DNA from: Nitrososphaera sp.
GTDB lineage: Archaea > Thermoproteota > Nitrososphaeria > Nitrososphaerales > Nitrososphaeraceae
Assembly: GCA_039938515.1 (NCBI GenBank)
Contig: JBDUUL010000010.1
Coordinates: 248,001 to 312,000 of the forward strand
Length of the DNA: 64,000 bases
Reading direction: 5' to 3'
The position numbers and the translations under genes are program-made. A model generated the notes under the pieces. It had not been told where the DNA came from and searched no databases. It was given only the letters and a program-made list of their open reading frames with translations. Below are positions 34,670 to 43,667 of the stretch, in pieces (within the stretch, counting starts at the first letter, position 1; every line of letters begins with the position of its first letter).

Positions 34670-34951
34670 TTATGGTTTTACGTGTACTACCCAGCGTTCC
34701 AATTTTGCAGCCTCTGGTTCCCAAGAGCGCTTGTACGCCAGGCCGATTTCGAAATCTCCTGCTTTCAGAGTTCCAAATTCAAGCAGTTGGCTACCCGGAC
34801 TGCCTGTCAGTTCCGAGTCAGGTTCGAATCTGGAAGACAACAGTTCCAAAGCGCTTGTGTCAAACTTCGGATACCACCTGAAACCCGTAGTAGGATTCGA
34901 ATTAACCTCAAGGACAAATTTCTGGCCAATCTTGGTTGTGATTTCTTGCAT
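34670..34951 (-). CDS. Chagasin-family (I42) cysteine protease inhibitor
   Basis: A 93-residue beta-sandwich inhibitor. All three papain-binding loops are visible: N-P-T-T-G-F-R-W (BC loop), a Gly-containing loop T-G-S-P-G-S-Q-L-L-E-F (DE loop), and Y-K-R-S-W-E-P in the place of the R-P-W FG loop. The start is taken at ATG 34951, because a TTAATAGA box lies about 20-28 bases upstream; a longer frame to 35038 would run through that box. It is divergent from a papain-like peptidase at 35071 with ~120 bases between starts, so inhibitor and protease likely form a pair. Confidence 0.8.
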   Translation of the reverse strand: MQEITTKIGQKFVLEVNSNPTTGFRWYPKFDTSALELLSSRFEPDSELTGSPGSQLLEFGTLKAGDFEIGLAYKRSWEPEAAKLERWVVHVKP

Positions 34952-35070
34952 GCACAATAATTGGCGAGCCTCTATTAAGTCCTCGCAGTTTTTCGCCTCA
35001 TGGATAACAGTGCATGAATCGCGGTGCAAGAGATACAATTGTTAAATAATACCTCGATGTGGACACTCCC

Positions 35071-35850
35071 ATGAGTTACAAGATCCAGAAATACGGTTGG
35101 ATTCCAGACCTTCCAGACCATCGAGATTTTATGTACTCCGCGCCCCCTGCTGTCTTGCAGAAACTGCCCGATTCGGTGGATCTCACACAAGGTAGTAGTT
35201 TCATGCCGCCTGTTTACGACCAAGGTCAGGTGGGAAGCTGTACCGCAAATGCGATAGCAGGTGGCTTTCAATACGCACGGAGAAAGAACAATGAAGCGCC
35301 GGACTTTGTCCCGTCTAGGCTTTTCATATACTATAACGAACGCGTAATCGAAGGAACGGTGAGCCAGGACAGCGGGGCACAAATCCGCGACGGCATAAAG
35401 ACCATAGCAAAGAGTGGGGTTTGCCCCGAAACCCCGGACTGGCCCTACGATCCTTCGAAGGTTACAGTAAAGCCTTCCCCGACTGCATTCCACGATGCTT
35501 CGAAGTACAAGGCTGTGCAATATCAGCGCCTAAACCAAGATCTGGCCCAGCTTAAGGGATGCTTGGCGTCCGGCTATCCCTTCGTATTTGGTTTCATGGT
35601 ATACGAGAGCTTTGAATCGCAGCATGTAGCCCAAACCGGAAATGTCCCAATGCCTGCTCCCAGCGAATCTGCAATCGGGGGTCACGCCGTTCTTGCAGTT
35701 GGGTACGATGACAAGCACCGGCAGTTTCTGGTAAGAAACTCTTGGGGCTCTAGTTGGGGTAAGAAAGGCTATTGTCACATGCCTTATGAGTACCTGATAA
35801 ACACAAACTTGGCAAGCGACTTTTGGACAATAAGCTTGATCAAAGCCTAG
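35071..35850 (+). CDS. Papain-like (C1A) cysteine peptidase
   Basis: A 259-residue mature-type papain fold. It has oxyanion Gln and catalytic Cys in D-Q-G-Q-V-G-S-C-T-A-N-A, catalytic His in G-G-H-A-V-L-A-V-G-Y, and Asn in V-R-N-S-W-G-S-S-W-G. There is no long propeptide and no signal sequence, so the protease is probably intracellular and held in check by its neighbour inhibitor. The start is ATG 35071, with a TTAAATAATA box at 35042-35051; GTG at 35059 is an alternative. Confidence 0.9.
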   Translation: MSYKIQKYGWIPDLPDHRDFMYSAPPAVLQKLPDSVDLTQGSSFMPPVYDQGQVGSCTANAIAGGFQYARRKNNEAPDFVPSRLFIYYNERVIEGTVSQDSGAQIRDGIKTIAKSGVCPETPDWPYDPSKVTVKPSPTAFHDASKYKAVQYQRLNQDLAQLKGCLASGYPFVFGFMVYESFESQHVAQTGNVPMPAPSESAIGGHAVLAVGYDDKHRQFLVRNSWGSSWGKKGYCHMPYEYLINTNLASDFWTISLIKA

Positions 35851-36166: not shown

Positions 36167-36958
36167 TTGGTGCTTTCTGGCCCCGCTGAGATTCGAAGTT
36201 CCTTGCGACCAGCGGAGCGCACGAGCAGTTTTGCCCCCGCCGAGCTGAGCGATTTTCCGGTATCAGGTCTTGGGCAGATCGAGAGGGGGCAGCCAGACCC
36301 GATTGAAATCTCTTTTTCTGGCGACTCGGCAGAGTACGCCATTTGCTTTGTAGACATGGTCAATTCCACGATGATATCAGCCACTCTTACTCACGAGGAG
36401 TTAACCCGATACTACTCGATATTTTTGAATAACATCGCCACGATTGTCGTAAAGCACGGTGGCAGGGTCCTCAAAAACGGGGGCGACGCCTTGATATTCT
36501 GTTTCAAATCAAAAAGTGAAAAACTAGAAAATGATAAAGTTCTCCGATCGGTTCTCGATTGCGGGTTATCTATAGTCGATGCTTGGATACACCTTAATGC
36601 ATCGACCCCGGCCGGAAAACATAAGATTAACTATAGAGTAAGCGCCGACTATGGTATGGTGAATATAGGCAAGTCAGTCGCAGTCGGGAGCGATGACTTG
36701 TTCGGACTGACCGTGAATTTGTGCGCCAAGATAAACTCGATGGCCCCTCTTAATGGAATGGTTATTGGCAATAGTCTTTATGACAAGGTGAAGGACTTTC
36801 CTGACTATGAGTTCAATTTGGTCGGTACCTATAGCCCTAAAATCGCAGACAAGTCCACAATCGGACTTCCAGACTTCCTGAAGAGTGGTTATCACGCATT
36901 CAGCGTGAAATCTGCAACAGGCAAAAAATCGCTAAATCCCTTTGACCCCGTGAGGTAG
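36167..36958 (+). CDS. Class III nucleotide cyclase homologue with altered catalytic residue
   Basis: A 263-residue protein with one cyclase homology domain. Metal Asp is in F-V-D-M-V-N-S-T (near residue 65) and the second Asp in K-N-G-G-D-A-L-I (near 107). The helix that normally reads V-N-x-A-A-R-L reads V-N-L-C-A-K-I, so the transition-state Arg is Lys. The first ~60 residues are a non-conserved extension with no membrane segment. Possible cAMP/cGMP synthase with reduced activity, or a nucleotide-sensing pseudo-cyclase. The start is TTG 36167 or GTG 36170. Confidence 0.8.
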   Translation: MVLSGPAEIRSSLRPAERTSSFAPAELSDFPVSGLGQIERGQPDPIEISFSGDSAEYAICFVDMVNSTMISATLTHEELTRYYSIFLNNIATIVVKHGGRVLKNGGDALIFCFKSKSEKLENDKVLRSVLDCGLSIVDAWIHLNASTPAGKHKINYRVSADYGMVNIGKSVAVGSDDLFGLTVNLCAKINSMAPLNGMVIGNSLYDKVKDFPDYEFNLVGTYSPKIADKSTIGLPDFLKSGYHAFSVKSATGKKSLNPFDPVR

Positions 36959-38506: not shown

Positions 38507-41500
38507 CTAATTATGTCGCTTTGTCCATGAGTCAACTAGCTTTTTGGTTTCATCATCCAAGTATTCTATGCGAGTTGCGAGCCCTTCCACCAGTCCAATT
38601 TCAAAGATTGCCCCTTTGTTTTCCACGGTTGCACCGCTGGAGTCATTATCGTGTTCCAAAGTTGATAAAACCTCGCGCTGAGTGGCGCGCTCTAAAGTCG
38701 TAAATGAATGCCCTATTTCAAAGGCAAGCTCCTTGCATCCGGGGCCGCCTTCACTTGCCCAGCGAAGAATTTCCCTTTGAAGCGTAATGTCTAGAAGGCT
38801 AAATGTCCTGCCTATCCCCTGTCCAAGCCCAACCACGAAACGGGCTGCGCAGTCTCCAAGCGATGAAGACTTTGGCCAATCCAGAAGCACTTCGCGCTTT
38901 TGGTTATCATCGAGCATCGGAAACATGGTTCCGATCGAGATCCCTGCAGAGGCTGCCAGTTCACAGTTACTCCGGATCATTTCTTTTAGGAGCACTTGGA
39001 ACTTTGGAGGTCCGTATTTGTAGCCAAATCCCGCTCCTGTTCCAAGACCTCGCGCAAGTGCAAAATTGCCTTTCGCGGTTTCCATGATCTGGGCTAATAT
39101 GCCCTCATGATCCGATGCAAGATAGGGAGCAGCAAAACCTAACCCGATTCCAAAGCCCTCAGAGAATGCGGAGTCGAGCTCGAGCGCCGGAATAATTTTA
39201 GTTTGAAAATCATTTTCGTAATAGGAAAAATACCTGCCGATTCCGGTGCCAAGGCCCCTGCAGAACTCGGCATGAAATTCGGAATCCCTCATTGAACTTT
39301 GCATAATCTCGTTATCCTGCAGCCAAACCTCCACATCGCCCGGGTCGGTTGAACTCTCGCCACATACTGGCAGTTGGAGCCGGCACAGATTTGATAGCAA
39401 CTGTTGAGTCACCTGGCTGGAGTGGGGATACCTCCTTCCTATGCCCGTTCCAAATCCGCGGGCAAGCCCCCTGATTGAAGCGATTCTTTTCAAAAAGTCA
39501 TTCTGTGAGTCCTGTTCCAGTGAGGCAAAAATTCTGCCAGCCCCGATGCCAAGCCCTATAGACAAGCCCGGATTGTCATGCGTCCATGAATAGAGGTCTT
39601 GCTTGAGCTTGCCGTCAAGGTAGGGCAGATTCGTTCCAAGGCCAGCACCTGCACCCCGTGTAAACGCAGAATCCGTCCGCATATGCTTCAATATTTCTTT
39701 TCGTTCAGGAATTGGAATGAACGAAAGCACCTTGGCAATCCCAAAGCCAAGTCCCTGCGCAAACTGGACGTCTGTCTCGGCGCGCTTGAATAGCACTTTC
39801 TGACGCTCCTTGTCGTAATACAAGAAGGTATAGCCGAATCCCAGTCCAAGGCCTTCCGAAAGCGAGCTGTTTGTTTTCGCGTGGGCAAAGATTACAGCAA
39901 TCTCCGCCCCAGACATGTACGTGGAACTGTATGCTATGCCAGATCCCAATCCGTGGGAAAGAGAGCTGTCCTTTTGAATATGGTCTACCAATAGCTGCTC
40001 CTGAACTTCTTCATCAAGCGTGGAGAAAAGGTAGCCTATTCCAAAGCCAAGTCCCTGCGCAAACTGGACGTCTGTCTCGGCGCGCTTGAATAGAGACTTC
40101 CTTTCGACCTCAGAAAGGTATGTGAAACTGTAGCCAAAGCCCATCCCCAGGCCTTCAGCAAGTTCCCCATTTGAAGCGGCTAGACACCTTGTCTCGTCTT
40201 GGGTTTCCTTGCTCAGGTACGAAAAATTATAGGCCAGCCCCATGCCCAGTCCACGCGCAAACTGCAGGTCACTCTTCATAGTCTTTGAGATCCGGGCTTG
40301 CAAATCTGCCCCGAGATAACGGTAAATGTAGCCGATGCCAATTCCCAGCCCTTCAGAGAGTTCAGTATTTGACTTTGATAGCTGGAAAGCTTCGTCCTGA
40401 GTTTTCTTTTCGTGGTACCTAAAGCCATATCCGATTCCCATGCCGACTCCCCGGGCAAACTGCGGATTACTTGAAGCCATCTCGACAATGAACTGCTGAC
40501 GGGACGCAGAATCTAGGTACTTTAGATTGAAACCGATACCAATACCTATTCCATGGCTCAGTTGGTGATTTCGCTCCGCCAGTTTCAGGAAATTGGATTG
40601 AATAGCCGCGCCCAGGAATGAAAATCTCATTGCAGCCCCAAAGCCAAGCCCGATGGAAAAGCCCGCATTGCCGTTAGCGTAAGCCAATAGTTTCGCCTGC
40701 TCTACTTCCTCAAGCGACGAAAAGACCTGGCCAATGCCAAAGCCAAAACCATGAGCAAACTGGGGGTTCCTGTCTGATTCTTCAATAAGCGTCTCCTTGA
40801 CTAGCTGGTCTTCCATCGTTTTGAAATTCTGACCCAGCCCTGTACTGAGGCCTCTTGCAAACTCGCTGTGTTTCTTTGCCAGGGCAAATACTTCGCGCCT
40901 GAAGGAATCCTTCATGAACGCAAAGACGTCGCTGACTCCGGCTCCAAGCCCCCTCGCAAACTCGCTATTCCTGTCGCCGCGATTGAATAGCTCCGTTCTT
41001 TCTGACTTTCGCAGCTGGTAGCAACCCCTGCCAAGCCCGACTCCCAGCCCGTAAGCAAACTGGACGTTTTCTTCGGCGAGTCCGAAGAGGCTCGCCTTTT
41101 GCTTGGCTTTGAGAGTTGAGAAACCTGTTCCTAGGCCATCCCCTAGTCCGCTTGCGAGATGTATGTTTCTCCTGGCTTCAGAAATTATCGATCCGTAAAC
41201 GTCGGTGTCCGCTGAACGCAATACCTCTGCCAGCCCGGAACCAAGTCCAAAAGAGAACTCGCCACTCAGCCCTGAGGCCTGCAGAACCGACTTCTGGAGC
41301 GGCTGCTCCAACTCAATGAACGCCTCTCCAATTCCCTTCCCGAGCCCAAGCGCGAAATCAATGTTTGACTTGATCTGGGCCGTTATGGCATCAGGAAGTT
41401 TGATTTCCGAAGTTCTCGGGGCATTGAGAATTGACGCAATGTTTCTTCCCATAAAGCGGGCGATCGAAAAACTTGCAGCACGAGTTGACACGAGACCTGG

Positions 41501-42628
41501 GAACTCGCGAGACAAGTACATGGCTATCTCCAGCGTTGTCTCGGCGTCGAACTTGCATGATTCGAGTGCCAGAGCATGCATCGAGTAATAGTCTCCGGCC
41601 AGATAGACCCAGGTAGTCAGCCTGCGGGCGGGAGACGGGGCTGGCTCAGATCCAAATATAGCCTTTTGCAGCCGGGAGACCGTGTTGAAATTCCTTTCGA
41701 GCCTCAGGTCGTAGCAGAGCTTCAGTGTCAGGAGAAACTCTGCATCGTGGCGCCGGGAAGGGATTCTGGACAATGTTTGAAACTGCGCTACAAAGTAGGC
41801 GCGCCGTGATGCCAATTCCTTCGCCTGAACTATCGCGCCTGTTCCAACCCGTGCCTTGCCTGCTGCAATTTGACCTACAAGCGATCTGTAGTAAAGGAGA
41901 ACAGTCGCAGGATACGGGTCGTTGTGCCAGAGCGTGCTCGCAACCTTGTTCAGACTCCCGGCCACGTACTTGCCGTACGCCTTGTGAAATAGTGATATGT
42001 TTTCTCCAAATTCAGAAAGCATCTTTGTCAGCGCCGACTTGTCGTACGACATCAAATGTGGCTGGAGTTCGGGGATCGAATCGGCGAGGTCCGAAAAGGC
42101 TTCAAAGTAATTTGCATTGAGCGAAATCAGAATGCTTCTGGCCCTAGACGACAGGAGGAGTTCAATGGATTCGCCGACGGTAAAGATGTCCCTCTTTCTG
42201 AGGTCGTCAGGAAAGTTGTCCCAGACCACAAGGTCTGCTGTGGTGATTCGCTGGATAAGGTCCTGAATGCTCACCCTCCCGTATTCGTCACCCGCGCTTG
42301 TCTTGGGATTCAAGACGTAGACGTTTTCGACCTCGTCAAACGACTCCTTTACAAGCTCAAATATGGCCCTTGATTTGCCGGAGCCATTTGGCCCCATAAG
42401 AAACGAGACGCGTGTGTTCTGAAAGACCTCATAGTCAGGAGGTTTTACAAATGGTATCGGAGAGCCATCGCTCTCCTCTAGTTGAAGATTCAGGGCGGTG
42501 GCTATGGCTTGCAAGGCCCGATCAGCCGCGGGTTTTTCCTTCAGCCGAGTGCCTGCTCTGGTCATCGAAAATGATAATTCTAGGCGCAATGCCAATTCTA
42601 AGGCAGAAGCAGAACCAGACCTTTGCAT
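38507..42628 (-). CDS. Giant P-loop NTPase with ~27 glycine-rich 33-residue repeats
   Basis: A 1373-residue cytosolic protein with no membrane segment. Residues ~70-210 form a P-loop domain with Walker A G-P-N-G-S-G-K-S (79-86) and Walker B L-V-V-W-D-N (133-138). A helical segment (~210-420) follows. From ~425 to ~1360 there are about 27 tandem units of mostly 33 residues with the pattern [F/L]-[A/S]-x-G-[L/I/F]-G-x-G-[I/L]-G, then an aromatic-Leu turn and a helix with conserved Gln and Ala/Asn. The repeat class is not one I recognise (not TPR, HEAT, ANK or WD40). The head-helical-repeats layout resembles STAND-type signalling ATPases. Start ATG 42628; alternative 42565. Confidence 0.75.
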   Translation of the reverse strand: MQRSGSASALELALRLELSFSMTRAGTRLKEKPAADRALQAIATALNLQLEESDGSPIPFVKPPDYEVFQNTRVSFLMGPNGSGKSRAIFELVKESFDEVENVYVLNPKTSAGDEYGRVSIQDLIQRITTADLVVWDNFPDDLRKRDIFTVGESIELLLSSRARSILISLNANYFEAFSDLADSIPELQPHLMSYDKSALTKMLSEFGENISLFHKAYGKYVAGSLNKVASTLWHNDPYPATVLLYYRSLVGQIAAGKARVGTGAIVQAKELASRRAYFVAQFQTLSRIPSRRHDAEFLLTLKLCYDLRLERNFNTVSRLQKAIFGSEPAPSPARRLTTWVYLAGDYYSMHALALESCKFDAETTLEIAMYLSREFPGLVSTRAASFSIARFMGRNIASILNAPRTSEIKLPDAITAQIKSNIDFALGLGKGIGEAFIELEQPLQKSVLQASGLSGEFSFGLGSGLAEVLRSADTDVYGSIISEARRNIHLASGLGDGLGTGFSTLKAKQKASLFGLAEENVQFAYGLGVGLGRGCYQLRKSERTELFNRGDRNSEFARGLGAGVSDVFAFMKDSFRREVFALAKKHSEFARGLSTGLGQNFKTMEDQLVKETLIEESDRNPQFAHGFGFGIGQVFSSLEEVEQAKLLAYANGNAGFSIGLGFGAAMRFSFLGAAIQSNFLKLAERNHQLSHGIGIGIGFNLKYLDSASRQQFIVEMASSNPQFARGVGMGIGYGFRYHEKKTQDEAFQLSKSNTELSEGLGIGIGYIYRYLGADLQARISKTMKSDLQFARGLGMGLAYNFSYLSKETQDETRCLAASNGELAEGLGMGFGYSFTYLSEVERKSLFKRAETDVQFAQGLGFGIGYLFSTLDEEVQEQLLVDHIQKDSSLSHGLGSGIAYSSTYMSGAEIAVIFAHAKTNSSLSEGLGLGFGYTFLYYDKERQKVLFKRAETDVQFAQGLGFGIAKVLSFIPIPERKEILKHMRTDSAFTRGAGAGLGTNLPYLDGKLKQDLYSWTHDNPGLSIGLGIGAGRIFASLEQDSQNDFLKRIASIRGLARGFGTGIGRRYPHSSQVTQQLLSNLCRLQLPVCGESSTDPGDVEVWLQDNEIMQSSMRDSEFHAEFCRGLGTGIGRYFSYYENDFQTKIIPALELDSAFSEGFGIGLGFAAPYLASDHEGILAQIMETAKGNFALARGLGTGAGFGYKYGPPKFQVLLKEMIRSNCELAASAGISIGTMFPMLDDNQKREVLLDWPKSSSLGDCAARFVVGLGQGIGRTFSLLDITLQREILRWASEGGPGCKELAFEIGHSFTTLERATQREVLSTLEHDNDSSGATVENKGAIFEIGLVEGLATRIEYLDDETKKLVDSWTKRHN
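39741..40093 (-). repeat. 53-bp identical segments in two repeats of the giant gene
   Basis: Bases 39741-39793 and 40041-40093 are identical over 53 positions, 300 bases apart, which is three repeat units including one of 34 residues. Neighbouring units are far more diverged, so this points to a recent duplication or gene conversion within the repeat array. Confidence 0.85.
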
Positions 42629-42830: not shown

Positions 42831-43667
42831 ATGTCGAAAAAGAATGAGCGTCCAAACGCTGACGGCGAGAGCCAGAACTCGCTCTCAATCCACGACCTTA
42901 TCCCACCAGCTCCCGGAGACCCCATCCGCATAGTCCCACCCATGATCGCACAAGATGTCGCCGCGGCGGATCTGAAGGCTTCGCCTCCAGCGAATGCTGT
43001 CTATCTAGGCGGTCCACTGATAAAGAACGTCGAAGTCTTTACTGTATTCTGGGGCTACTGGTGGCAGTCCCCAACACAGCAGCCACTCATTGACAGCATC
43101 AACTCGTTTTTCAAGACCATCCTCCAAAGCCCGCTTATCGATCAGATAAGCAAAGACTACAGCACGCCGCAATATCCTATAGGCCAAGGTAAGTTCATAG
43201 GAACTGCTACAATAACGACCCCCAAGATCACCCACAGCATTAGCGATGCCGCGATACAGACGGTCATTCAGTCCGAGATTGCAAACGGGACACTGCCTGC
43301 TCCTGACATGAACAAGCTTTACTTTGTTTACCTTCCGCTGGGAGTAGTTGCAGTTCAAGGCGGCAGCAGGTCCTGCCAGTCATTCTGCGGATATCATGGC
43401 GACATTTCGGGCAAGATATTCTATGCAGTAATGCCATACGCGGGCTGCCAGGGCTGCGTCGGAGGCATGGTGACATTGGACGCGCTGACTGCAACAAGCT
43501 CACACGAACTTTGCGAGGCGATAACAGATCCGATTCCGGGCACAGGTTGGTACAACAACTACCATGGCGAAATTGGAGATTACTGCGCCTGGCAGATGAA
43601 GCCTGCAAGAATAGGGGGCTACATGGTCCAGAAGGAATGGTCAAACTCGGCGAACGGATGCGTCTAG
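42831..43667 (+). CDS. Putative zinc-metallopeptidase-like protein, HExxE motif (EXORDIUM/phi-1-like)
   Basis: A 278-residue protein. The C-terminal part contains S-S-H-E-L-C-E-A-I-T-D-P followed ~20 residues later by G-E-I-G-D-Y-C-A-W. This pairing resembles the HE-L-x-E-A-x-T-D/N-P plus GEI(A/G)D-C pattern of phosphate-induced/EXORDIUM family proteins and related putative zinc proteases. Eight Cys in the last 120 residues may form disulfides, which would fit an exported protein, yet no signal peptide is seen. The N-terminal ~45 residues are Pro-rich and probably disordered. It is divergent from the giant repeat NTPase gene. Confidence 0.6.
   Translation: MSKKNERPNADGESQNSLSIHDLIPPAPGDPIRIVPPMIAQDVAAADLKASPPANAVYLGGPLIKNVEVFTVFWGYWWQSPTQQPLIDSINSFFKTILQSPLIDQISKDYSTPQYPIGQGKFIGTATITTPKITHSISDAAIQTVIQSEIANGTLPAPDMNKLYFVYLPLGVVAVQGGSRSCQSFCGYHGDISGKIFYAVMPYAGCQGCVGGMVTLDALTATSSHELCEAITDPIPGTGWYNNYHGEIGDYCAWQMKPARIGGYMVQKEWSNSANGCV

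What the first reader, a model, noticed from the sequence alone, without database searches (positions are those of the whole stretch)
34670..35850. Divergent chagasin inhibitor and papain-like peptidase pair
All three inhibitor loops are recognisable, and the peptidase has intact Cys/His/Asn with no propeptide. Head-to-head genes with ~120 bases between starts indicate a protease held in check by its own inhibitor, a toxin-antidote-like logic.
Basis: partly seen in the sequence, partly recalled or inferred. Interest (0 to 1): 0.6.

Follow-up and report, generated by a model that had tools for sequence, protein, structure and literature searches.

The report
Protease and inhibitor gene pair, archaeon
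An ammonia-oxidising archaeon carries, back to back, a gene for a papain-like protein-cutting enzyme of bacterial type and a gene for an inhibitor of such enzymes; the same two kinds of gene lie side by side in many unrelated microbes, so they probably work together, but nobody has yet shown that the inhibitor blocks this enzyme or that the pair is a toxin and antidote.

Summary
The pair is real. Minus-strand 34951-34670 encodes a 93-aa chagasin-family (I42) inhibitor (Pfam E 1e-16). Plus-strand 35071-35850 encodes a 259-aa papain-family (C1A) peptidase with Gln/Cys/His/Asn intact. The ATGs are 119 bases apart, each with a TATA-like box ending 21 bases upstream. The genome has archaeal AmoA: an ammonia-oxidising archaeon. 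The peptidase is xylellain-type (52% identical to 3ois, Z 38), closest relatives bacterial (67%), probably horizontally acquired. 'No propeptide' needs correcting: it keeps the xylellain N-terminal segment reported to block the active site. The stated refuter fails: I42 and C1 genes lie within 1.5 kb of each other in 5 of 8 other genomes holding both (chance about 2e-13), and pairs also occur in Planctomycetota and Deinococcota, in divergent, convergent and co-directional layouts. Best reading: a cytosolic latent protease kept off by a dedicated cytosolic inhibitor. Toxin-antidote logic is unproven: most xylellain-type genes lack an adjacent I42, and most I42 genomes lack C1. Side find: five of five proteins fusing an M78 (ImmA/IrrE) domain to an I42 domain have a C1 peptidase gene directly downstream; that cassette is more novel than the pair itself.

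The parts
34670..34951 (-). Chagasin-family (I42) cysteine peptidase inhibitor, 93 aa, no signal peptide; stop 34670-34672 (an alternative TTG start at 35038 would lie just beside the C1 TATA-like box)
   Evidence: Pfam PF09394 E 9.8e-17; phmmer to chagasin/PaICP; AF2 model pLDDT 96.5, Z 12.4-13.5 to chagasin and EhICP2
34880..34897 (-). Inhibitor loop L4 NPTTGF (the loop that enters the active site in chagasin complexes)
   Evidence: alignment A2
34793..34807 (-). Inhibitor loop L2, TGSPG (degenerate against GxGG)
   Evidence: alignment A2
34721..34729 (-). Inhibitor loop L6, RSW (consensus RPW; RSW also in archaeal relatives)
   Evidence: alignment A2
34973..34978 (-). TATA-like box TTAATA for the inhibitor, ending 21 bases upstream of its ATG (leaderless transcript inferred)
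   Evidence: sequence
35042..35049 (+). TATA-like box TTAAATAA for the peptidase, ending 21 bases upstream of ATG 35071 (leaderless transcript inferred)
   Evidence: sequence
35071..35850 (+). Papain-family (C1A) peptidase, xylellain-type, 259 aa, no signal peptide
   Evidence: Pfam PF00112 E 1.1e-15; phmmer 3ois E 2.5e-80; model pLDDT 92, Z 38 to 3ois, 52% id
35071..35175 (+). Xylellain-type N-terminal segment (YGWIPDLPDHRD), propeptide-like, predicted to lie across the active-site cleft
35221..35241 (+). Oxyanion Gln (35221-35223) and catalytic Cys (35239-35241), QGQVGSC
   Evidence: alignment A1: Gln column invariant, Cys nearly invariant
35683..35739 (+). Catalytic His (35683-35685, GGHAV) and Asn (35737-35739, NSWG)
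   Evidence: alignment A1 invariant columns

Best explanation
A dedicated protease-inhibitor pair in the cytosol of an ammonia-oxidising archaeon. The peptidase is a xylellain-type papain-like enzyme, very likely acquired from bacteria, made as a latent form whose N-terminal ~35 residues lie across the active site. The chagasin-type inhibitor is made from the other strand of the same 119-base promoter region. It would bind peptidase molecules whose N-terminal segment has been displaced or cut off, pushing loop L4 (NPTTGF) into the catalytic site with L2 and L6 on either side, as chagasin does on papain and cathepsins. It thus sets a threshold that activity must exceed. Shown: the genes, the folds (as models), intact catalytic residues, recurrence of the pairing. 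Inferred: cytosolic location, leaderless divergent expression, acquisition from bacteria, binding, threshold role. Unknown: substrate and activating signal.
For: Only C1 peptidase found in its genome. The genome's other I42 is the C-terminal domain of a SIMPL protein with an N-terminal hydrophobic stretch, so by elimination the neighbour is the only I42 likely to be cytosolic. Genomes holding both families: 6 of 70 in its own family (expected 1.7, hypergeometric p 0.001) and 4 of 398 Pseudomonadota (expected 1.4, p 0.04). Where both occur the genes lie within 1.5 kb in 7 of 10 genomes, or 5 of 8 leaving out G000 and G070 (chance 2e-13). More pairs: G515, G843 and G759, G075 and G078, Deinococcus aetherius plasmid with both named by NCBI. 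Xylellain-type pairs in the window, G070, G515 and G843 all have inhibitors without a recognisable signal peptide. [quoted passage not shown]
Against: No binding or inhibition data. Most xylellain-type relatives have no adjacent I42. In G016 the neighbouring I42 is broken by a frameshift (or the assembly is) while the peptidase is intact. L2 is degenerate. The N-terminal segment may already suffice for control, and it would have to move for the inhibitor to bind.
Confidence: 0.62

Rival explanations
1. Toxin-antidote or regulated-suicide module: free peptidase harms the cell, and loss of inhibitor or surplus activation after stress or virus attack lets it kill or arrest its host.
For: Tight pairing, patchy distribution, bacterial origin. 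Related cassettes put an I42 domain on an M78 protein directly upstream of a C1 peptidase, one with a CapH-like repressor in front, and a Deinococcus plasmid places the pair beside a caspase-family gene.
Against: Divergent rather than operonic; most xylellain-type peptidases stand without an adjacent I42; intact peptidase beside a broken inhibitor in G016; no PADLOC hit for either window protein; built-in N-terminal block.
Confidence: 0.15
2. The inhibitor is aimed at foreign cysteine peptidases (grazing protists, predatory bacteria), as proposed for lone bacterial I42 proteins, and adjacency to a peptidase is incidental.
For: 25 of 29 I42-bearing Pseudomonadota genomes in the survey show no C1 match, and many of their I42 proteins start with lipoprotein-like signals. 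The title and abstract of PMC5014320 report a secreted Pseudomonas syringae protein that inhibits tomato immune proteases; the full text names chagasin-like proteins.
Against: The window's inhibitor has no recognisable signal peptide from either start; adjacency recurs far beyond chance.
Confidence: 0.12
3. Two unrelated horizontally acquired genes that happen to sit side by side in a variable region.
For: The stretch (33.1-38.4 kb) was not found downstream of phoU in five relatives of the same genus, so this is a variable region.
Against: Recurrence of the pairing in several phyla and in all three orientations.
Confidence: 0.06

Closest known systems
Xylellain (PDB 3ois), Xylella fastidiosa C1A peptidase
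   Same: 52% identity over the whole chain including the N-terminal segment; Z 38, rmsd 1.8 over 250 residues
   Different: Archaeal host and a chagasin gene next door; a few extra residues (SSFMPP region) before the DQG motif; ribonucleotide binding reported for xylellain not tested
Chagasin family (MEROPS I42; T. cruzi chagasin, P. aeruginosa ICP 2wgn, EhICP2)
   Same: Ig-like fold and three loops at the expected places
   Different: 22-32% identity; L2 GSPG and L6 RSW; no signal peptide; neighbour of its presumed target
Protease-inhibitor gene pairs: staphopain-staphostatin, and Bacteroides C10 protease genes studied together with staphostatin-like inhibitors (PMC2873492)
   Same: Cysteine protease gene linked to the gene of a small dedicated inhibitor (from knowledge of these systems)
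   Different: Other peptidase and inhibitor families, secreted enzymes, operons rather than divergent genes
CapH-CapP regulators and M78 repressor-protease pairs (lead for the side cassette only)
   Same: HTH repressor plus ImmA/IrrE-like peptidase in the side cassette
   Different: Not present in the window; the side cassette adds an I42 domain and a C1 peptidase

Membership tests
Papain family C1A, xylellain type | Pfam PF00112 above cut-off and closest solved structure xylellain | tested here: met
   58.7 bits against 20.7; 3ois E 2.5e-80 with the next structures at 1e-10; Z 38 against 27.7 for the next
Papain family C1A, xylellain type | Catalytic Gln-Cys-His-Asn | tested here: met
   alignment A1
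Papain family C1A, xylellain type | N-terminal cleft-blocking segment | tested here: met
   sequence motif and alignment of model residues 1-257 with 3ois 26-290; blocking itself is inferred
Chagasin family I42 | Pfam PF09394 above cut-off and chagasin Ig fold | tested here: met
   61.5 bits against 27.2; Z 12.4 to 2h7w
Chagasin family I42 | Loops NPTTG(Y/F), GxGG, RP(W/F/Y) | tested here: inconclusive
   NPTTGF met; GSPG and RSW are variants
Chagasin family I42 | Inhibits clan CA cysteine peptidases | not testable with these tools
   needs an inhibition assay
Type II toxin-antitoxin system | Bicistronic operon with antitoxin gene next to toxin gene on one strand | tested here: not met
   Divergent genes, not an operon
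Type II toxin-antitoxin system | Toxic partner neutralised by the other | not testable with these tools
   needs an expression test

The most novel reading that the evidence does not exclude
The pair is one form of a widespread, unrecognised class of prokaryotic cell-fate modules in which a latent papain-like protease is held by a chagasin-type domain; the XRE - M78-I42 - C1 cassettes would be the stress-triggered form, and the archaeal pair a two-gene form.
Probability: 0.12. Interest if true: 0.78.

Novelty: new variant of a known kind. Interest (0 to 1): 0.45.

Why it matters
Chagasin-type inhibitors are widespread in prokaryotes, but in the one paper found here that discusses it (PMC2784779, 2009) experimental inhibition by a bacterial chagasin was known only against a eukaryotic cathepsin, so their natural targets are largely open. 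A locus where inhibitor and candidate target sit together, each apparently the only cytosolic member of its family in the genome, makes that question directly testable. The recurrent linkage also gives a rule for finding cognate pairs.

Tried and rejected
Original papers on xylellain and on the chagasin family (2002) are not held, so the active-site block and the nucleotide binding of xylellain rest on memory plus the paper's title cited in PMC10380794. Virus-borne pair: two viral contigs and five phage records carry relatives, and the two viral contigs fetched have no I42 within 4 kb. Plasmid-borne source: no plasmid record above 60% identity. GC content does not mark the pair as foreign (48% and 51% against 49%). 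Whether the inhibitor is of archaeal stock: favoured by the trees (93/81 and 90/98 support) but an alternative grouping with the Acetobacteraceae inhibitors is not rejected (p-AU 0.20). Single archaeal origin of the xylellain-type peptidases of the window and G016: weakly rejected (p-AU 0.039). A wrong-frame row (L103) in the first inhibitor tree was dropped in the second; L141's inhibitor was also mis-framed there and was left out. NCBIfam and PADLOC add no name to the window pair.

Full report
Observation. On the minus strand, ATG 34951 to stop 34670 encodes 93 residues that match Pfam Inhibitor_I42 (E 9.8e-17, 61.5 bits, cut-off 27.2); on the plus strand, ATG 35071 to stop 35850 encodes 259 residues that match Peptidase_C1 (E 1.1e-15, 58.7 bits, cut-off 20.7). 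The starts are 119 bases apart. A TATA-like TTAAATAA ends 21 bases before the peptidase ATG and a TTAATA ends 21 bases before the inhibitor ATG, a spacing that suits leaderless archaeal transcripts (inference). The longer TTG-started inhibitor ORF (35038) would begin right beside the peptidase's TATA-like box and adds no hydrophobic signal sequence.

Host. The window is part of a 2.56 Mb assembly that contains archaeal AmoA (PF12942, E 2.8e-117), so it is an ammonia-oxidising archaeon. It has one C1 peptidase and two I42 domains above cut-off; the second is fused to a SIMPL domain in a protein with an N-terminal hydrophobic stretch.

The peptidase. Its nearest solved relative is xylellain, 3ois (phmmer E 2.5e-80, the next at 1e-10). 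The AlphaFold2 model (pLDDT 92.2, pTM 0.91) superposes on 3ois over 250 residues with Z 38, rmsd 1.8 and 52% identity, model residues 1-257 on 3ois 26-290. Gln, His and Asn of the active site are invariant in 20 aligned relatives and Cys is nearly so. The N-terminal motif YGWIPDLPDHRD is conserved in the xylellain-type relatives listed, and the next-best structures are proforms of cathepsins, with the model's N-terminus aligned to their propeptide region. From knowledge of the xylellain work (Leite et al. 2013, cited in PMC10380794; the paper is not held), this segment blocks the active site. So the enzyme is not 'without propeptide': it has a short one of another kind.

Origin. The peptidase's closest relatives in 84,980 species genomes are bacterial: Limobrevibacterium 67%, Amantichitinum 64%, Pseudomonas 62%; the archaeal G016 copy is 58%. 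Trees place the window in the mainly bacterial xylellain group, apart from most other archaeal C1 peptidases. Horizontal gain is the likely reading, in line with the finding in PMC10380794 that 56% of short archaeal C1A peptidases came from bacteria. The test against a single archaeal clade is borderline (p-AU 0.063).

The inhibitor. The model (pLDDT 96.5) matches EhICP2 and T. cruzi chagasin (Z 13.5 and 12.4). L4 NPTTGF is perfect, L6 is RSW, L2 is GSPG. By sequence it is nearest to I42 proteins of the same archaeal family (35-41%), several of which carry signal peptides; the window's copy has none. Trees favour archaeal stock without proving it.

In 70 genomes of the archaeal family, 10 have I42, 12 have C1 and 6 have both (expected 1.7, p 0.001); in 4 of the 6 the two lie within 1.5 kb. 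In 398 Pseudomonadota genomes 29 have I42, 19 C1 and 4 both (expected 1.4, p 0.04); in 3 of these 4 they are neighbours. Under random placement, 5 or more of the 8 genomes left after leaving out G000 and G070 would be adjacent with probability 2e-13. Further pairs: G075 and G078, G515, G843 and G759 in the planctomycete survey, and a Deinococcus aetherius plasmid where NCBI names both products, one gene apart. Layouts differ: divergent here, convergent in Limobrevibacterium, G515, G843 and G016, co-directional elsewhere. Several C1 subfamilies are involved. Linkage kept through different orientations and partners points to function rather than to one inherited block.

Limits. Of the xylellain-type genes found only five have an I42 next door (window, G016, Limobrevibacterium, G515, G843). 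In G016 the I42 reading frame is broken while the peptidase is intact. 25 of 29 I42-bearing Pseudomonadota genomes have no C1 match. So neither partner needs the other in general, which argues against an obligate toxin-antidote. Relatives in the same genus have other genes downstream of phoU, and none of the genes from 33.1 to 38.4 kb was found in the 7 kb examined in five of them: the pair lies in a variable region.

Mechanism. Likeliest: a latent cytosolic protease with a second, in-trans safety catch. The N-terminal segment covers the site; when it is displaced or cut, the inhibitor competes for the same cleft. [quoted passage not shown]). Binding, activation and substrate are not shown.

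Side result. Five proteins (L034/L105/L154, L073, L104, L152, L153) join an M78 (ImmA/IrrE) domain to an I42-like domain, and each is followed directly by a C1 peptidase gene. Pfam confirms both domains above cut-off in the three tested. In L104 a helix-turn-helix gene similar to CapH lies upstream, and the M78 part resembles CapP. A search of 299 genomes of the order found three such proteins, all with the peptidase next door. This looks like a repressor-sensor-protease module and deserves its own study. No paper describing I42-C1 pairs in prokaryotes turned up in the library searched; that library is incomplete.

Noticed in passing
L104:59-2103; L034/L105/L154 (G070:C34); L073 (G397); L152 (G1098); L153 (G510): Cassette in which a protein fusing an M78 (ImmA/IrrE) domain to a C-terminal I42/chagasin domain is followed directly by a C1 papain-like peptidase gene; in L104 a CapH-like HTH gene lies upstream. 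Five of five M78-I42 proteins have the peptidase next door; I found no description of it.
   Followed up: partly
L157 (Deinococcus aetherius plasmid NZ_AP026562.1, 308361-312678): C1 peptidase, hypothetical protein, I42 inhibitor and caspase-family protein genes in a row on one strand.
   Followed up: partly
L001 (G000:C15:179333-179593) and L005 (G041): I42 domain fused to the C-terminus of a SIMPL (DUF541) protein with an N-terminal hydrophobic stretch in ammonia-oxidising archaea, including the window's own genome.
   Followed up: partly
L039:2-1198 (G069:C462): Archaeal C1 peptidase interrupted after NSWGAEWGE by an intein-like splicing domain (Pfam Intein_splicing E 4e-6, below its cut-off), near the catalytic Asn.
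   Followed up: partly
window 38507-42628 (-): 1373-aa ORF with an N-terminal P-loop (GPNGSGKS) and many repeats of the type FAxGLGxGxGxxFxxL; no Pfam family above cut-off.
   Followed up: no
window 36167-36958 (+): Class III adenylate/guanylate cyclase domain protein (PF00211, 35 bits) near the pair in an archaeon.
   Followed up: no
window 42831-43667 (+): 278-aa ORF with a TTAAATAA box upstream of its ATG and no Pfam or NCBIfam match.
   Followed up: no
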